From: Calothrix sp. C42_A2020_038
GTDB lineage: Bacteria > Cyanobacteriota > Cyanobacteriia > Cyanobacteriales > Nostocaceae
Direction of reading: 5' to 3'
Length of the DNA: 64,000 nt
NCBI GenBank assembly: GCA_015272395.1
Contig: JACYLQ010000007.1
Span: forward strand, 124,001 to 188,000
Every line of letters starts with the position of its first letter. Position 1 is the stretch's first letter. Under the pieces are notes generated by a model. It saw only the letters and a list, made by a program, of their open reading frames with translations, had not been told where the DNA came from and ran no database searches. This document shows positions 55,287 to 63,553 of this stretch, in pieces. Position numbers and translations under genes: made by a program.

Positions 55287-56399
55287 ATGACTATTGATAA
55301 ATGTGTTTACATTATTTTAGGTACTCGTCCAGAAGCGATCAAGCTGGCGCCTGTGATTAAGGTGTTTGGTGCTGCTGTTGGTATTAAGTCGAAGGTGATA
55401 TTAACAGGACAGCACCGGGAAATGGTTGAGCAGGTGATGGGGTTGTTTGATATTAAGGCTGATAGAGATCTGGAGATTATGCAGCCAAAGCAGTCTTTGA
55501 GCGATATTACTTGCCGGAGTTTACGAGGGTTAGAAATATTATTTCAAGAAGATAAGCCAGATTTAGTTATTGTTCAAGGAGATACGACTACTGCGTTTGC
55601 GGCGAGTTTGGCTGCTTTTTATCATAAAATCCCAGTTGGACATGTTGAAGCTGGTTTGAGAACCGATGATTTGTATAACCCTTATCCAGAAGAAGCAAAT
55701 CGGCGCCTGATATCACAGATTACGCAACTACATTTTGCACCAACGAGTTTAGCGGTAGAAAATTTACAGCGTTCGGGTGTATTGGGTGAAGTACATTTAA
55801 CAGGAAATACAGTAATTGATGCCCTATTAGATGTGGCAGCAAAGCAACCTCCTTGTAATATACCTGGTTTAGAGTGGGATAAATTCCGCGTTCTCTTAGC
55901 AACAGTACACCGTCGTGAAAATTGGGGCGAACCTTTGCAGGATATAGCTCACGGGTTTTTACAATTATTAGACAAATTCCCAGATACAGCATTACTACTT
56001 CCCCTACACCGCAACCCAACAGTACGCGAGCCGCTACAAGCAATACTTGGTAATCATCCACGTATATTTTTAACAGAACCACTCGATTATGCCGAACTAG
56101 TCGGAGCAATTATGCGCTCCTACTTACTGCTAACTGACTCCGGTGGGTTACAAGAGGAGGCGCCAAGTCTTGGTAAACCAGTTTTAGTACTACGAGAAAC
56201 TACCGAACGTCCGGAAGCAGTCACAGCAGGTACAGCTAAACTAATAGGTACAAACACAAATAATATTGTCATAAATGCAACTGAGCTATTAGCAAATTTA
56301 ACTGCGTATGAAACAATGGCCAACGCAATCAACCCATTTGGTGATGGCAAAGCTGCCACAAGAATCTTAGATATAGTACAAAAATACGTAAGTGAATAA
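55287..56399 (+). CDS. wecB: UDP-N-acetylglucosamine 2-epimerase (non-hydrolysing)
   Basis: It converts UDP-GlcNAc to UDP-ManNAc for surface polysaccharides. Its 370 residues start MTIDKCVYIILGTRPEAIKLAPVIK, the family's N-terminal signature. Others are TGQHREM, VIVQGDTTTAFAASLAAFYHKIPVGHVEAGLRT, NPYPEEANRRLISQI, and in the second domain VHRRENWGEPL, DSGGLQEEAPSLGKPVLVLRETTERPEA. The gene is not in the polysaccharide cluster at 0.7-11 kb, but its product would feed a WecG-type transferase. No terminator of the upstream gene reads into it. An unrelated short gene follows on the opposite strand. Confidence 0.95.
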   Translation: MTIDKCVYIILGTRPEAIKLAPVIKVFGAAVGIKSKVILTGQHREMVEQVMGLFDIKADRDLEIMQPKQSLSDITCRSLRGLEILFQEDKPDLVIVQGDTTTAFAASLAAFYHKIPVGHVEAGLRTDDLYNPYPEEANRRLISQITQLHFAPTSLAVENLQRSGVLGEVHLTGNTVIDALLDVAAKQPPCNIPGLEWDKFRVLLATVHRRENWGEPLQDIAHGFLQLLDKFPDTALLLPLHRNPTVREPLQAILGNHPRIFLTEPLDYAELVGAIMRSYLLLTDSGGLQEEAPSLGKPVLVLRETTERPEAVTAGTAKLIGTNTNNIVINATELLANLTAYETMANAINPFGDGKAATRILDIVQKYVSE

Positions 56400-56621: not shown

Positions 56622-56828
56622 TGAACAATCGTCTCCTCAAAAGGGTCGAAGGTTACTAAGCGCCATCACAGAAACTCGGTTGATTTTAACTATCTAAACA
56701 TAAACATAGATAATTACCAGAAAACGCGGAAGTGGATTGAAAAAAGTCTAGTTATAGTGGTGTAACACTTGTTTATTTTGATAACCTATTTTAGCTTGTC
56801 AGGTGTCTCAAGACTCTACCACTACCCT

Positions 56829-59800
56829 ATGTATACGCAAAATCGAGCAGAACTTATCGAGATACTATTGGAACATACACCTCTGGCGATTGCTATGTTC
56901 GACCGAGAGATGCGTTACATCGCGACTAGCCGTAAGTGGTTAATAGATTATAATTGTACTGAGCAAAACTTGATTGGACAGCATAATTGTCGGGTTTTGC
57001 CAAATATTGCTTCGATGTGGAAGGATGCTCATGACCGTTGTTTAAGAGGTGAGGTACACTTTACTTGCGAAGCGCAAAAATTTGTGACTCAAGCTTCGGG
57101 TTCTGTGGATTGGCTAAAATGGGATTGTCGTCCTTGGTATGAACAGAACGGTGATATTGGTGGAACTATATTTTATACAGAAATAGTTACTGAACAAAAG
57201 CAAGCTCAAGAAGCGCTGCGGCAAACTCAGTCACGTTTCCAGAAGTTGGCAGCAAACGTACCGGGGATGATTTACCAGTGTTTATTAACTGCTTCTGGTG
57301 TATTTACTTTGCCATATGTAAGTCCGGGTTGTCGGCGCCTACTCGAATTAGAACCAGAGACGCTTCAAGAATATGGCTCTTTATTTTACGACTTTATTCA
57401 TCCGGAAGACAAATCTGTATTTCAGGAATCAATGGCAATAAGTGCAGATACGCTATTGCCTTGGTTATGGGAAGGTCGAATGATTACTACTTCAGGTAAA
57501 TTTAAATGGGTGCGCGCGACAGCCAGACCTGAAAAACAAGTAAACGGCGATATCATTTGGGATGGACTACTAATTGATATTAGTGACCGAATACTGGCAG
57601 AAGCACAGTTACATCAATATAAAGAGCTATTAGAAAACTTAGTAGAACGGCGTACTAGTGAATTAAATACAACTAATATTCAATTGCAAGCGGAAGTATT
57701 GGAACGTCAAAAAGTAGAATTTGCATTGCGACGAAGTGAAATGCGCTTTCAAAAACTCTCAGCAAATATACCTGGAGTTTTGTATCAGTATGTACTTTGC
57801 CCAGATGGTTCTCACCACTTTTCTTATATTAGTGCTGGCTCTCGTCAAATTTATGAGCTAGAACCAGAACAAGTTTTGAATGATGGCGAAGCTGTGTTTC
57901 GACTTGTGCATCCAGAAGATTTACCCAATTTATATCAATCTGTACAATTATCAGCCAAAACCCTAGAACCTTGGAGCCTTGAATGGCGTATTATTACACC
58001 ATCTGGGCGCCTGAAATGGTTACAAGGGTCATCACGCCCAGAAAAGCAACCTAACGGTGACATTGTTTGGGATGGTTTAGTGATGGATGTAACTGAACGC
58101 AAGCGTGCGTTGGAAGCACTATGTCAAAGTGAAACTCGTTATCGAAAGCTAACAGCAAATTTGCCAGGAATGACTTTTCAGTTTGTGATGTACCCAGACA
58201 AAAGTTATCATTTTGCTTATATCAGCCCTGGTAGTAATGAACTGTATGGATTAGAACCAGAAATAATACAACAAGATACAAATAGACTACTTGAGCTAAT
58301 TCACACTGACGACCGCGCGCAACTTTTACAATCAGTTACAATCTCAGCCGAAACCTTACAAGTTTGGAAACAAGAATGGAGAGTTATAAGACCAAGTGGC
58401 GCAATAAAGTGGGTACAAGCTTTATCTAAACCAGAGAAACAAGCTGATGGAAGTATTATTTGGGACGGCTTAATGACCGATATTACGGAGCGGAAAGTAG
58501 CAGAAGAATCACTAAAACTCAGTGAACAAAAATTCCGAACCTTATTTGAAAAGTCGGCTGATGGTATATTAATATACGATGGAGAAATTTTTATAGATTG
58601 TAATCAAGCGGCAGTTAAGATGATGGGTTGCTCCAGTCAAGACCAACTATTGAGTCTTTCTCCTTCTCAACTATCTCCAGAGTATCAATATGATGGTCGT
58701 CCATCCTTTGAAAAAGCTGTAGAACTGACAAACATAGCATATGAAAAAGGTAGCCATCGGTTTGAGTGGGTACATCGTCGCATCAATGGCCAAGACTTTC
58801 CTGTAGAAGTACTTTTAACAGCAATCCCACTTCATGGTAAAGAAGTATTTTATACAGTCTGGAGAGATATTACTGATCGTAAGCAAGCAGAAGAAGCGTT
58901 ACGGAAAAGCGAGCTTCGTTATAAAGAACTTGCAAGACGTGAACAGTTACTTAACCATCTAGCGAATCAAATTCGTAATACCTTAGATTTAGATACCATT
59001 CTGGAAACAGCAATTATAAATATCCAGCAAATACTACATATAGACCGTTGTAGCTTTTCGTGGTTCAAAGCGGATGCAAATCCACCTGTTTGGGAAACTG
59101 TAAAGGAAGCAAAACATCCTAGTTTTCCTAGTTTATTGGGTTGTCATCCTGTAGATAAGATTGGACCAGTTACTCAAATGTTTGTAAACCAAGAAATTCT
59201 CAAAATTGATGATGTGACACAATTTGAAGAATCGATGCACAGGGAGTTTTTGAAGTCATTAGGAATTAAATCGGAAATTGTTCTGCCAATTAAAACTCGT
59301 TCGGATCAAATTGGTGTGATAGTTTGTGGTCATTGGACAGAAACTCGTACTTGGACTTCAGACGAAGTGGAACTTTTGCAGGCAGTTGTCGATCAATTAG
59401 CTATTGCCATAAACCAAGCCGAACTTTATACTCAAAGTCAACACTCTGCTTTAATTGCCACTCAACAAGCCCAACAAATAGAAAATGCTCTCGAAGAACT
59501 GAAGCGCACTCAAATGCAGCTTGTACAAAGTGAAAAAATGTCAAGCCTCGGTCAATTAGTCGCTGGTGTTGCACATGAAATTAATAACCCTGTAAATTTC
59601 ATTTACGGTAACTTATCTCATGCTAGTAATTACACTGAGGATTTACTCAATTTAGTTGAACTATATCAGGAAGAGTACCCTCAGCCTACAGATAAAATCG
59701 TTGAACAAATTGATGCTATTGATTTAGATTTTCTTATTTCTGATTTACCTAAAATCATGTCTTCTATGAAAGTAGGTTCTGAAAGAATTCGCGAAATTGT

Positions 59801-60341
59801 TCAGTCATTACGGACTTTCTCTCGCCTCGACGAAGCTGAAATGAAAAAGGTTGACATTCATGAAGGAATTGAAAGTTCTTTAATGATTTTGCAACATCGC
59901 CTCAAAGCTAGGCAAGACCGGGAAGTAATTCAGGTGATTGAAGATTATGGAAGCCTACCAATGGTTGTATGCTATGCTGGACAGCTCAACCAAGTTTTTC
60001 TTAATATACTTGCTAATGCTATTGATGCATTAGAAGAGGGAGTGGAAAAGGGTTTAGTATCACAACCCACTATACGTATTACTACTAAAATGTTAGAAAA
60101 TGCTCGCGTCGCAATTCACATTGCTGATAACGGGGTTGGGATGGAAGCGGAAGTTAAAAAACGTTTATTCGATCCATTTTACACTACAAAACCCGTTGGA
60201 GTTGGTACAGGCTTAGGACTTTCAATTAGCTATCAAATCATTGTAGATAGGCATGGTGGATGTTTACGTTGCAATAGCGAACTTGGCCAAGGTACAGAAT
60301 TTGTTATTGAAATACCAATTCTTCAAACAGGTAATACATGA
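56829..60341 (+). CDS. Multi-PAS/GAF sensor histidine kinase
   Basis: The start ATG at 56829 (MYTQNRAELIEILLEHTPLAIAMFD) follows the family pattern; a 20-residue extension to 56769 is possible. The 1170 residues contain five PAS domains (about 8-130, 136-265, 305-430, 437-560, 570-690), a GAF domain (about 705-860), a dimerisation/phosphoacceptor domain with His near 915 (GVAHEINNPVNF) and an HATPase domain (FLNILANAIDAL, IADNGVGM, GTGLGLSISYQII). The middle three PAS units are close copies of each other (RFQKLAANVPG, RFQKLSANIPG, RYRKLTANLPG), each ending in an IWDGL-type segment and DIxxR/E. It should act as a soluble sensor. No response regulator is adjacent, so its partner is unknown. Confidence 0.93.
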   Translation: MYTQNRAELIEILLEHTPLAIAMFDREMRYIATSRKWLIDYNCTEQNLIGQHNCRVLPNIASMWKDAHDRCLRGEVHFTCEAQKFVTQASGSVDWLKWDCRPWYEQNGDIGGTIFYTEIVTEQKQAQEALRQTQSRFQKLAANVPGMIYQCLLTASGVFTLPYVSPGCRRLLELEPETLQEYGSLFYDFIHPEDKSVFQESMAISADTLLPWLWEGRMITTSGKFKWVRATARPEKQVNGDIIWDGLLIDISDRILAEAQLHQYKELLENLVERRTSELNTTNIQLQAEVLERQKVEFALRRSEMRFQKLSANIPGVLYQYVLCPDGSHHFSYISAGSRQIYELEPEQVLNDGEAVFRLVHPEDLPNLYQSVQLSAKTLEPWSLEWRIITPSGRLKWLQGSSRPEKQPNGDIVWDGLVMDVTERKRALEALCQSETRYRKLTANLPGMTFQFVMYPDKSYHFAYISPGSNELYGLEPEIIQQDTNRLLELIHTDDRAQLLQSVTISAETLQVWKQEWRVIRPSGAIKWVQALSKPEKQADGSIIWDGLMTDITERKVAEESLKLSEQKFRTLFEKSADGILIYDGEIFIDCNQAAVKMMGCSSQDQLLSLSPSQLSPEYQYDGRPSFEKAVELTNIAYEKGSHRFEWVHRRINGQDFPVEVLLTAIPLHGKEVFYTVWRDITDRKQAEEALRKSELRYKELARREQLLNHLANQIRNTLDLDTILETAIINIQQILHIDRCSFSWFKADANPPVWETVKEAKHPSFPSLLGCHPVDKIGPVTQMFVNQEILKIDDVTQFEESMHREFLKSLGIKSEIVLPIKTRSDQIGVIVCGHWTETRTWTSDEVELLQAVVDQLAIAINQAELYTQSQHSALIATQQAQQIENALEELKRTQMQLVQSEKMSSLGQLVAGVAHEINNPVNFIYGNLSHASNYTEDLLNLVELYQEEYPQPTDKIVEQIDAIDLDFLISDLPKIMSSMKVGSERIREIVQSLRTFSRLDEAEMKKVDIHEGIESSLMILQHRLKARQDREVIQVIEDYGSLPMVVCYAGQLNQVFLNILANAIDALEEGVEKGLVSQPTIRITTKMLENARVAIHIADNGVGMEAEVKKRLFDPFYTTKPVGVGTGLGLSISYQIIVDRHGGCLRCNSELGQGTEFVIEIPILQTGNT

Positions 60342-61131
60342 TTAATTTTGATGTCAAGAGCTACCCATAATCATAATTCTGGAATTAGCAACTGATTTTA
60401 TTGAGAAGTTATAAAGGTTAAATGCTTTATATAATTGAATCTATAATCAAGAATATTTTAAACGTTAATTTATAATTAACCTGGCTTTTCGCTCGTTATG
60501 CGGAAAACCGACGTAAAACCTATCCCTCTAACCTCTTTTCTTTAAGGAAAGGGGAAAAAATATACTCCCCTTTCTTTGTAGGAGAGAGGTTAAGGGAGAG
60601 GTTCTTAACATGTAAATAAATTATTAGATAATTAACACAAAGTTTTTAATTTTTTACTAAACTATTCTACTTGAATAGAGACTGATAAATTACAATATCA
60701 AACAGCTTTATATAAATAATTTATTATTAATTTTTTATAAATTAACTAAAAATGTTAATATATACTTCACAAAATTTTAAAGAAATATCCATAATATTAC
60801 TTAAAATTATTAATAATCGATGACTTTAGTAAAACGCATAGATTTTCTGAGTTTTTACGACTGTCAAAAAAAAATATAAGCTGTAAATTATATTTGTGGT
60901 ACGCAATCAAAGTAATTTACATAATTTTGTTTAAACTTTGGTTGAAATTTTTGTTTTTTAACTAATATTATGTTAGTTAAATTTTAGCTCTTGCTAAATG
61001 CATCTAAGTTATCAGGTCGCACTATCACAAATGAGAAAATTAGCTCTAAGGCAAAAGAAGATAACTTCTTGATTGAGCTAAATTATTCACCTTTACCTTG
61101 ATAACCTAAGCGCACATAGCGAGTAAATAAA
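60342..61131. other. AT-rich intergenic region with a palindromic repeat
   Basis: The 790-bp spacer has no supported gene. At 60519-60602 an imperfect inverted repeat pairs CTAACCTCTTTTCTTTAAGG with GAAAGGGG-type and GAGAGAGGTTAAGGGAG-type segments. It resembles the hairpin near 54265-54293 and a common cyanobacterial intergenic repeat. At 61035-61084 AAATTAGCTC and GAGCTAAATT form a weak hairpin upstream of the next gene. Confidence 0.5.
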
Positions 61132-61878
61132 ATGAAAGAAGTATTAGCATTCATCGAAGAACAAAAACAAGAATACACCAAGCTTCCTTTATTTCAGTTT
61201 CTAGATGACAAAACTATCGATCCAAGGCAAAGATTAGGCTTTGCTCCATGTATAGCTCACTTCATTATGAGTTTTGGTGACTTAAACAAATATGTTTTCC
61301 GAGAAAAAGAAGCAGTAACGAAAGCTCAACAAATTATCAATGAACATACTTTTGAAGATGATCATCATTGGCCCTGGTTCATTACAGATTTAGAAAAATT
61401 AGGATTCAATCAAAGTATGACCTTTACTCAAGTGTTGAGGTTTTTGTGGAGCGAACAAACAAAAGTTAGTAGATTGCTATCTTATTATCTTTCTGCATAT
61501 ACCTTACAAGCAGACCCATTAATGAAAATAATTGTAATTGAGGCAATTGAAGCAACAGGTAATGTTTTATTCTCGAAAACTGCAAAAATAGCTTCAGAAT
61601 TAACTGCTGTTACTCAACAAGACTATATATACTTTGGTGAATTTCATTTCAACTTAGAGACTGGTCATGCAATGGGAGAACACGAGGGTGAAAAGTATCT
61701 CGAACAAATAAAATTGACCGATGTGCAGCGGCAAGAAGCATATGATCTGGTTAAGAAAATATTTAGCATTTTTACCGACTGGACGAACGAACTTTTGGCT
61801 TATGCACAAAAACAAATCATTGAAGAAGAAAACTCTAAGGTAGCAAACTCTACTTTGGTACATTGTGGAAAACATTAG
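61132..61878 (+). CDS. Heme-oxygenase-like fold protein, candidate diiron oxidase (HDO-type), copy 1
   Basis: This is a 248-residue, mainly helical soluble protein. Residues that fit the ligand pattern of heme-oxygenase-like diiron oxidases are visible: E71 and H78 in EHTFEDDHH (E-x6-H), E140 in EAIEATGN, and H172, E176, H179 in FHFNLETGH (H-x3-E-x2-H). The spacing resembles that of the CADD protein (E81-H88, E142, H174-D178-H181), the last interval being the same. Histidine-rich HHWPWF and the FIMSFGD stretch are shared with the second copy. A function in an oxidative conversion is possible, with the substrate unknown. A paralogue follows after 143 bp. No signal peptide is present. The fold call is by motif only. 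Confidence 0.72.
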   Translation: MKEVLAFIEEQKQEYTKLPLFQFLDDKTIDPRQRLGFAPCIAHFIMSFGDLNKYVFREKEAVTKAQQIINEHTFEDDHHWPWFITDLEKLGFNQSMTFTQVLRFLWSEQTKVSRLLSYYLSAYTLQADPLMKIIVIEAIEATGNVLFSKTAKIASELTAVTQQDYIYFGEFHFNLETGHAMGEHEGEKYLEQIKLTDVQRQEAYDLVKKIFSIFTDWTNELLAYAQKQIIEEENSKVANSTLVHCGKH

Positions 61879-62021
61879 CATTTTATAATGCTACTAAGCC
61901 CTTCTATATTAGGAGGGTATTTTATTCAAAAAATTTATTTATACCTATTCTATAAACACAAATGGAATAGGAAAATATTTGTTCAATACTTTTGAAGGCA
62001 AATCGGTGAGGATAACTCAAA

Positions 62022-62759
62022 ATGGAAGAAATAATCGCTTTTATCAATTATAAAAAGCAAGAATTTGTTCAATTACCTTTGTTTAAAATGATGAAAAGTC
62101 CTACATTAGGAGCAAAACAAAAACTCATTTTTGCTCCTTGTATGGCTCATTTTATCATGAGTTTTGGAGATATTAATTGTTATATATTGCGAAATTTAGA
62201 TACAGTAGACCCAATTCAAAACATTGTTAACCAGTACAGTTATGAGGATGATAAGCATTGGCCATGGTTTATTACAGATATTGAGCAATTAGGTCTTGAC
62301 GCAAAATTATCCTTTACCCAGTCATTAAGATTTATTTGGAGTGAGCAAAATAAAATCACACGTCAGTTAACTTATTATATTTCTGCATTCACTCTACAAG
62401 CTAGTTCATTTATCAAGTTAGTAGTGATCAGAGTCCTAGAAGCAACCAGTGATGTGTTTTTTTCCATATCAAACACAATTACCTCAGAGTTACAAAAAAC
62501 AACTAATCAAGAATACCTGTATTTCGGTAATTACCATTTAATTGCTGAAAAAGAGCATACGATCACGTCATCAGAATCAGAAGATTATCTTTCTCAAATC
62601 ACACTTACAAAGGCACAACATCAGGAAGCTTTATATGTAGTTGAGGAAATATTCAATCTTTTCTCAGAGTGGACATATGAACTACTAGCTTACGCGCGCA
62701 ATCATGCTGCAGAGTCAACAGCAGAAAAAACATCCAACGCTACATTGTTAGCTGTGTAA
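62022..62759 (+). CDS. Heme-oxygenase-like fold protein, copy 2, with altered metal ligands
   Basis: The 245-residue paralogue of the preceding gene is alignable without gaps through about residue 180 (FAPCMAHFIMSFGDINCYI, EDDKHWPWFITDIEQLG, LRFIWSEQNKITRQLTYYISAFTLQA). It keeps E140 and the H172-x3-E176-x2-H179 set, and H79. The two residues matching E71 and H78 of copy 1 are Q71 and K78. If those are iron ligands, this copy may bind one metal or none, or may be non-catalytic. It is in the same direction, 143 bp downstream, so it probably arose by tandem duplication. There is no clear ribosome-binding motif near either start beyond short A/G-rich stretches. Confidence 0.72.
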   Translation: MEEIIAFINYKKQEFVQLPLFKMMKSPTLGAKQKLIFAPCMAHFIMSFGDINCYILRNLDTVDPIQNIVNQYSYEDDKHWPWFITDIEQLGLDAKLSFTQSLRFIWSEQNKITRQLTYYISAFTLQASSFIKLVVIRVLEATSDVFFSISNTITSELQKTTNQEYLYFGNYHLIAEKEHTITSSESEDYLSQITLTKAQHQEALYVVEEIFNLFSEWTYELLAYARNHAAESTAEKTSNATLLAV

Positions 62760-62794
62760 GTAAAGTGAATAGCAAAGTACACAGCCTAGTTTTT

Positions 62795-62878
62795 ACAGCT
62801 AATTTCAAGTTGGTTAAATACAATCGAGCGGGCAAGGATGCCCACTCCACAACAGTTTGATTTTAATCTATGTACCTC
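62795..62878. repeat. 83-bp dispersed repeat, copy B
   Basis: It matches 23347-23429 over its whole length (TTCAAGTTGGTTAAATACA, GAGCGGGCAAGGATGCCC, GTTTGATTTTAATCTATG, GTACCTC). In this copy the core is a better palindrome (GAGCGGGCA...TGCCCACTC). It lies 36 bp after the copy-2 gene stop. Confidence 0.9.
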
Positions 62879-62895
62879 TGCGTTTAATCCGTTTA

Positions 62896-62936
62896 CCTAA
62901 GCATAGGGGGTGACTCCTATGCTTAGGCTCTCGCTT
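62896..62936 (+). terminator. Hairpin terminator between convergent genes
   Basis: CCTAAGCATAGG (62896-62907) and CCTATGCTTAGG (62916-62927) form a twelve-pair stem, followed by a CTTTTT run. It serves the plus-strand paralogue and the opposing SH3-domain gene. Confidence 0.85.
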
Positions 62937-62953
62937 TTTCTTGATAGACCTTT

Positions 62954-63553
62954 CTACAATCCCAATGCAGCTCGAGTTTGCGGTCCAACTCGACCATCAG
63001 CAAGCAAACCGTTATTAATTTGGAAGTTACGCACCGCGCGTTCTGTAATTGAGCCGTAGTATCCAGTAGCTGCTATGCCTAAACGACGTTGAACTTGCGA
63101 AACTGGGGCGCCTGCTGAACCAACACTCAGAGTCACTGGTCCACCAACACCAAGTCCAGGAGTAACAGGTCTTACACCTGTACCTGGACGAGAAGCTACA
63201 AATCTAGTAGCTACGTAATAGCCTGAAGTCAAACGAGAAAAACCGTTTTCGGTATCAACTACAACTGCCAGGCGAGAACCATTCGGCAAACAGCCAACAA
63301 CTCGCGAATTCAAACTTGGCTGGCTACGTACATTTAAACAACTACCATTAGTGCGGACAAAACCTGTAACAGCTGCTTGAGCTTCCCCAAATGTAGCAAA
63401 GACAAGCCCTAGGCTTGCCAGTGCCAAACTTGTGGATTTGAATAAGTTTTGATTGAAAAGTTTCTGAAAGTTAAATTCTATTTCGGGGAGTCCTAATTCG
63501 GGTTCTGCGGTCTCATTCGCGTCAAACATCGAAGCATAAGCTAAATATTCCAT
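62954..63553 (-). CDS. Exported SH3 and peptidoglycan-binding domain protein
   Basis: The protein has 199 residues. An unusual acidic N-terminal extension (MEYLAYASMFDANETAEPELG) precedes a hydrophobic segment with a signal-like AQA end (LFKSTSLALASLGLVFATFGEAQA, about 38-60). The mature part has a bacterial SH3-like domain (TNGSCLNVRSQPSLNSRVVGCLPNG, about 68-120), a Gly/Pro linker and a C-terminal PG_binding_1 domain (VSQVQRRLGIAATGYYGSITERAVRNFQINNGLLADGRVGPQTRAAL, about 150-197). Such proteins bind cell-wall peptidoglycan. Several cyanobacterial relatives have the same extended N terminus before the signal, which is why I keep this start. Confidence 0.85.
   Translation of the reverse strand: MEYLAYASMFDANETAEPELGLPEIEFNFQKLFNQNLFKSTSLALASLGLVFATFGEAQAAVTGFVRTNGSCLNVRSQPSLNSRVVGCLPNGSRLAVVVDTENGFSRLTSGYYVATRFVASRPGTGVRPVTPGLGVGGPVTLSVGSAGAPVSQVQRRLGIAATGYYGSITERAVRNFQINNGLLADGRVGPQTRAALGL

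What the first reader, a model, noticed from the sequence alone, without database searches (positions are those of the whole stretch)
61132..62759. Tandem heme-oxygenase-like paralogues with a diiron-oxidase ligand pattern, one copy missing two ligands
Copy 1 has E71, H78, E140, H172, E176 and H179. These fit the E-x6-H ... E ... H-x3-(D/E)-x2-H arrangement of HDO enzymes such as CADD; the E140-H172-E176-H179 spacing equals that of CADD. Copy 2 keeps E140, H172, E176 and H179 but has Q71 and K78. The two genes seem to be an intact and a modified version of one active site, which would be a new pair of either two enzymes or an enzyme plus a regulatory partner. The substrate is unknown and no biosynthetic gene lies next to them.
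Basis: partly seen in the sequence, partly recalled or inferred. Interest (0 to 1): 0.75.

Follow-up and report, generated by a model that had tools for sequence, protein, structure and literature searches.

The report
Paired AetD-like diiron oxidases, both intact

Summary
Both ORFs are real: 248 and 245 aa, 50% identical, same strand. They are heme-oxygenase-like diiron oxidases (HDOs) of the AetD subfamily: phmmer E 3.5e-55 and 1.9e-40, ungapped, same numbering; AlphaFold models match AetD crystals at TM 0.85-0.92. AetD crystals show D76 and H79, not E71 and H78. Both copies keep all six AetD ligands (D76, H79, E140, H172, E176, H179) plus F44, F48 and Y167; copy 2's K78 is also AetD's residue. 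Copy 2 is not missing ligands.

What differs is the pocket. The A (7 rows) and B (20 rows) clades are fixed for different residues at only three positions, 15, 139 and 146; the last two line AetD's substrate pocket. The pair is old: A-type genes occur in 8 of 217 family genomes, 7 of 8 in tandem with B. An O-methyltransferase sits beside A in 7 of 8 A loci, though not in the window.

Best reading: two working enzymes that oxidatively cleave the side chain of free aromatic amino acids (probably tryptophan), with diverged substrates or outcomes. Substrate and product are inferred. New members of a known kind.

The parts
61132..61878 (+). Copy A: AetD-subfamily HDO, 248 aa; ligands D76, H79, E140, H172, E176, H179; pocket I41, F44, F48, I139, T142, L146, Y167, F214, L221
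62022..62759 (+). Copy B: AetD-subfamily HDO, 245 aa; the same six ligands; pocket M41, F44, F48, L139, T142, F146, Y167, F214, L221
61898..61918 (+). Terminator-like hairpin followed by a T-rich tail between A and B; the two need not share one transcript
   Evidence: consensus scan only: 5 such sites in 60300-63000 against 1.0 expected
56769..60341 (+). PAS/GAF multisensor histidine kinase upstream; syntenic with related HDO loci, no functional link shown
   Evidence: Pfam; relatives 56-68% identical at 13 of 16 compared loci (in L003 only a fragment)
55287..56399 (+). UDP-GlcNAc 2-epimerase; syntenic neighbour
   Evidence: Pfam; relatives 80-92% identical at 9 of 16 compared loci
62954..63553 (-). 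SH3 / peptidoglycan-binding protein downstream; syntenic neighbour
   Evidence: Pfam; relatives 47-83% identical at 4 of 16 compared loci

Best explanation
The two genes encode two catalytically complete diiron HDOs of the AetD/SktA subfamily, products of an old duplication kept in tandem. Each probably binds a free aromatic L-amino acid, most likely tryptophan, whose amine and carboxylate ligate Fe1 at the site left open by F48, with Y167 holding the carboxylate and F44 plus residue 146 sandwiching the ring. Substrate binding helps complete the diiron site, O2 gives a peroxo-diferric species, and the side chain is oxidatively cleaved or rearranged. A and B differ in the ring pocket (139 I/L, 146 L/F, 41 I/M), so they most likely take different substrates or give different products. 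Shown here: homology, fold, ligand conservation, fixed A/B differences, conserved pairing. Taken from published AetD work: binding mode and chemistry. Inferred: substrate and product of A and of B.
For: phmmer to AetD, ungapped, both copies. Models of pLDDT 91.7 and 90.1 whose only Foldseek matches at E <= 0.001 are 21 AetD chains each. Six ligands plus F44, F48, Y167 in both; full ligand set in 92 of 95 family members. A and B clades fixed for different residues at 15, 139, 146; two of three are AetD pocket positions, P 0.004 post hoc. Purifying selection on both lines, dN/dS 0.08-0.22 (four A pairs) and 0.16-0.26 (four B pairs). AetD turns over plain L-Trp at lower conversion, about 35%; PDB titles list AetD crystals with L-Tyr and L-Phe.
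Against: No substrate or activity data. Copy B departs from residues conserved in at least 85% of the family at seven positions (26, 34, 51, 72, 137, 143, 178; R137 is unique to it), copy A at none. B pairs show somewhat higher dN/dS in three of four comparisons. The A clade has support 89/89, below the tool's star level. Distances around the metal site were not measured in the models (no coordinates laid out). AetD's own pocket residues M139, A142 and S214 are not kept.
Confidence: 0.65

Rival explanations
1. Copy B is mainly a regulatory or structural partner of A (heterodimer) with little catalysis of its own.
For: A-type genes are in tandem with B in 7 of 8 genomes. AetD is dimeric. B departs at seven conserved positions. 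A one-chain fusion of an intact and a ligand-depleted AetD-like domain exists on Escherichia plasmids.
Against: All six ligands are kept in B. B-type genes stand alone at 8 loci (L102-L105, L111-L114; L103 is a short contig) and A alone at L110, so neither needs the other there.
Confidence: 0.12
2. Both are AetD-type nitrile synthases that differ only in ring preference.
For: AetD is the only characterised enzyme found by sequence or fold search.
Against: AetD's M139, A142 and S214 are replaced by I/L, T and F; T142 and F214 are the SktA state, and SktA, with a predicted identical ligand set, gives skatole instead of nitrile (review). No Trp_halogenase (PF04820) match in the own genome, although that model may miss AetF-type halogenases (recalled).
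Confidence: 0.15
3. One reading: A has E71/H78 as metal ligands and B has lost them.
For: The letters are as stated and fit the CADD-type spacing (recalled).
Against: AetD crystal ligands are D76 and H79; AetD has I71 and K78; E71 occurs in 29 of 95 relatives.
Confidence: 0.03

Closest known systems
AetD, nitrile synthase of Aetokthonos hydrillicola (e.g. PDB 8JI3, 8TWW)
   Same: Fold, ungapped alignment in the same numbering, all six diiron ligands, F44, F48, Y167
   Different: 38-40% (A) and 31-33% (B) identity in the Foldseek alignments; M139, A142, S214 replaced by I/L, T, F; no matching gene cluster in the window
SktA, tryptophan to skatole HDO (J. Am. Chem. Soc. 2025, 147, 6326; paper not held)
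   Same: T142 and F214, and the same predicted ligand set according to the review
   Different: SktA has T139, A has I139 and B L139; sequence not available here, so identity and place in the tree are not tested
CADD / CT610 (PDB 1RCW, 8VA9)
   Same: Heme-oxygenase-like fold, TM 0.61-0.76 in the 1RCW rows
   Different: 12% identity; self-sacrificing p-aminobenzoate synthase; Fe1 ligand order E-H-H rather than H-H-E
UndA (6P5Q) and BesC (7TWA)
   Same: HDO fold, in the Foldseek lists; like them AetD is substrate-triggered
   Different: 10-14% identity; other substrates

Membership tests
HDO superfamily | Heme-oxygenase-like helical bundle | tested here: met
   AlphaFold models and Foldseek
HDO superfamily | 3-His/3-carboxylate diiron ligands on three core helices | tested here: met
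   Both copies by ungapped alignment with AetD; 92 of 95 relatives. Geometry in the models not measured
HDO superfamily | Binds iron and reacts with O2 | not testable with these tools
   Needs purified protein
AetD subfamily | D76 and H79 as helix-1 ligands, F48 in place of the Glu ligand, Y167 to the carboxylate, F44 stacking | tested here: met
   positions
AetD (nitrile synthase proper) | M139, A142, S214 in the pocket | tested here: not met
   I/L139, T142, F214 (AetD residues)
AetD (nitrile synthase proper) | Makes a carbonitrile from tryptophan | not testable with these tools
   Needs assay
SktA | T139, T142, F214 | tested here: inconclusive
   T142 and F214 met, T139 not; T142 and F214 are common in the family, 79 and 91 of 95
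SktA | Same branch of the tree | not tested
   SktA paper and sequence not held
   E71 in 29 of 95, H78 in 71 of 95; neither in AetD

The most novel reading that the evidence does not exclude
A and B form a conserved two-enzyme module, possibly a heterodimer, in which two diiron HDOs with different ring pockets act in sequence or side by side on aromatic amino acids. In most A-bearing lineages the module is extended by an O-methyltransferase that caps A's product: a small, unclustered pathway to a volatile or signal made from plain aromatic amino acids.
Probability: 0.18. Interest if true: 0.65.

Novelty: new member of a known kind. Interest (0 to 1): 0.42.

Why it matters
AetD chemistry became known through one toxin pathway, yet its subfamily is common: 141 of 217 genomes of the window's family match copy B at E <= 0.001, and neither Pfam nor NCBIfam has a model that names it. 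A pair with identical ligands and a few fixed pocket differences is a natural experiment on how the second sphere of HDOs sets substrate and outcome, which the 2026 HDO review singles out for future work. The linked O-methyltransferase is a concrete lead to a product.

Tried and rejected
Curated families: copy A gave only a sub-threshold DUF7675 match and copy B none in Pfam; no NCBIfam match for either; of the 37 members of alignment A1, two matched DUF6202 and one DUF5662 weakly (best E 0.0059 and 0.0072), which explains nothing. Rfam: no match at gathering score in 60300-63000. Promoter-like sites were no more frequent than in shuffles, 11 against a mean of 13.7. Biosynthetic cluster: 29 neighbours of relatives scanned with Pfam gave housekeeping genes, transporters, regulators, TonB receptors and single enzymes, no consistent pathway except the O-methyltransferase. 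Remnant of a lost second HDO between the upstream gene and the HDO at nine single-HDO loci: nothing but one 12-residue match of E 0.16. O-methyltransferase as a general HDO partner: only partly upheld, since 33 further loci holding 35 other methyltransferase places show no HDO in the fetched stretch, some of which are short contigs. Papers: seven full-text searches listed no report of a tandem AetD-like pair that I could recognise from titles and abstract starts; the library lacks many subscription papers, including the SktA paper. An order-wide search drew 388 genomes and added no further A-type gene (other hits 53-58% identical).

Full report
Observation. Window 61132-61878 and 62022-62759 hold two same-strand ORFs of 248 and 245 aa, 143 bases apart. 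They are 50% identical over 243 residues without a gap. The own genome (6.53 Mb, 50 contigs) has these two and no other match to copy A at E <= 0.001.

What they are. Pfam gives only a sub-threshold hit for copy A (DUF7675, 16.1 bits against a cut-off of 27) and none for copy B; NCBIfam gives none. Against solved structures copy A hits AetD at E 3.5e-55 over residues 1-227 and copy B at 1.9e-40 over 2-232, both without gaps and in the same numbering. AlphaFold2 models built with 37 aligned sequences (of the 95 found in all) have mean pLDDT 91.7 and 90.1. In both Foldseek searches 21 AetD chains are the only matches at E <= 0.001 (TM 0.85-0.92); heme-oxygenase-fold proteins such as CADD, UndA, BesC and TenA follow at 8-16% identity. 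A and B are therefore members of the AetD subfamily of HDOs.

The ligand question. I read passages and single sections of the two AetD papers: PMC11611611 (passages, section 6) and PMC10654658 (passages, section 7). Fe1 is bound by H79 and H172, Fe2 by D76, E140 and H179, with E176 bridging; the alanine variants of Fe-coordinating residues tested in PMC10654658 lost activity. Both window copies have all six. In 95 distinct family sequences from all loci held at that point, 92 have the full set; the exceptions are a copy truncated by an in-frame stop (L003), one E176D (L007) and one D76E (L063). Position 71 is E in 29 of 95 and position 78 is H in 71 of 95. PMC10654658 itself notes that AetD's ligand order complicates reading the ligands from an alignment. 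'One copy missing two ligands' is refuted by homology.

What differs between A and B. A tree of 94 rows (the truncated L003 copy left out) gives a B clade of 20 rows (support 100/99) and an A clade of 7 rows (89/89, below the tool's star level), with one window copy in each. Both clades hold sequences from Rivularia, Plectonema, Cyanomargarita and the window, so the split is older than these lineages. Only three positions are fixed for different residues: 15 (Y/F), 139 (I/L) and 146 (L/F); position 41 is nearly so. Residue 146 clamps the indole against F44 in AetD; 139, 142 and 214 are the active-site differences between AetD and SktA named in the review PMC13108848 (passages). That two of three fall among nine pocket positions named in these papers has hypergeometric P 0.004; the test is post hoc and ignores shared ancestry. 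Against an equal role for B, it departs from residues conserved in at least 85% of the family at seven positions (26, 34, 51, 72, 137, 143, 178), copy A at none; several of B's departures are shared with other B-clade members. Both lines are under purifying selection: dN/dS 0.08-0.22 for four A pairs and 0.16-0.26 for four B pairs, B being higher in three of four, with synonymous sites near saturation in the pairs that include the window.

Pairing and surroundings. A-type genes (67% identity or more; the next hits are at 58%) occur in 8 of 217 genomes of the window's family. In 7 of these 8 a B-type gene follows; G081 has A alone. In G191/L003, one of the seven, the A frame carries a stop. Eight other loci fetched with wide flanks (L102-L105, L111-L114) have B alone; L103 is a short contig. 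Among 7 genomes of the genus only the window's has an A-type gene. The position is syntenic: relatives of the window's upstream PAS/GAF histidine kinase (56-68% identity) lie at 13 of 16 compared loci, of the UDP-GlcNAc 2-epimerase at 9 and of the SH3/peptidoglycan-binding protein at 4; some stretches are too short to show all. None of these suggests a pathway. A terminator-like hairpin lies between A and B.

A methyltransferase lead. An O-methyltransferase (Methyltransf_2 with dimerisation domain) lies divergently upstream of A in 7 of 8 A loci and in 0 of the 8 B-only loci. The window is the exception, and its genome has no match (E <= 0.001; the same query matches in 37 of 217 genomes at E <= 1e-60). 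Of the 42 places listed in those 37 genomes, the seven of at least 69% identity are exactly those beside A. The other 35 places, in 33 loci fetched, have no HDO in the stretch. Elsewhere, a methyltransferase 34-37% identical to these overlaps the HDO gene by four bases in Dyella (L029) and Burkholderia cepacia (L047) and lies at the same place in B. arboris (L045); a more distant one follows the HDO in two loci of the window's genus (L159, L160). The association is real for A but not a property of the whole family, and the seven A loci are related, so they are not seven independent events.

Mechanism. From AetD work: the amino acid chelates Fe1 and pre-organises the labile site, and a peroxo-diferric species starts the oxidation. 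AetD accepts unbrominated Trp at about 35% conversion, and crystals with L-Tyr and L-Phe are listed by title. With F44, F48 and Y167 kept and F214 where AetD has the S214 that contacts the 7-bromine, A and B are most simply read as acting on aromatic amino acids without a 7-substituent. Whether the outcome is nitrile, skatole plus cyanide (title of the SktA paper in the reference list) or something else cannot be told: T142 and F214 agree with SktA but position 139 does not, and most of the family shares T142 and F214 (79 and 91 of 95). The own genome has no PF04820 tryptophan halogenase; the control search rang in 5 of 14 genomes.

Verdict. New members of a known kind, with a conserved pairing and a methyltransferase link that I did not see described in the listings. 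An arrangement of that kind turned up elsewhere, as a two-domain protein found mostly on Escherichia plasmids.

Noticed in passing
L115:8001-9503 (NZ_CP099341.1, Escherichia fergusonii plasmid): A 500-aa 'hypothetical protein' is two AetD-like domains in one chain. Domain 1 (1-231) keeps all six ligands and F44/F48/Y167/F214 equivalents; domain 2 (270-468) aligns with L, N and E at the D76, E176 and H179 positions. DNA matches in 265 of 5426 complete E. coli genomes, 263 of 268 places on plasmids.
   Followed up: partly
L001, L002, L003, L004, L005, L107, L110; also L029, L045, L047, L159, L160: Class II O-methyltransferase beside AetD-like HDO genes: 7 of 8 A loci, a 4-base overlap in Dyella and Burkholderia cepacia, and more distant relatives in two Calothrix-type loci.
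   Followed up: partly
Tree: L007, L064, L090, L094, L095, L097: The six rows of 95 that carry SktA's T139/T142/F214 set all fall in one 17-row cyanobacterial clade; candidates for SktA-like enzymes.
   Followed up: no
plasmids collection: AetD-like matches on 332 plasmid records, among them 36 of Piscirickettsia and 22 of Salmonella; only the first 20 rows were seen and only an E. fergusonii, a Calothrix and a Streptomyces record were opened.
   Followed up: no
L003:2531-3001 (G191:C154): The A-type copy of an uncultured Calothrix MAG has an in-frame TAA while its B neighbour is open; gene decay or an assembly error.
   Followed up: no
window 56769-60341: The PAS-rich histidine kinase beside the HDO genes varies in length between loci (749-1211 aa), mostly at its N-terminal sensor part.
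   Followed up: no
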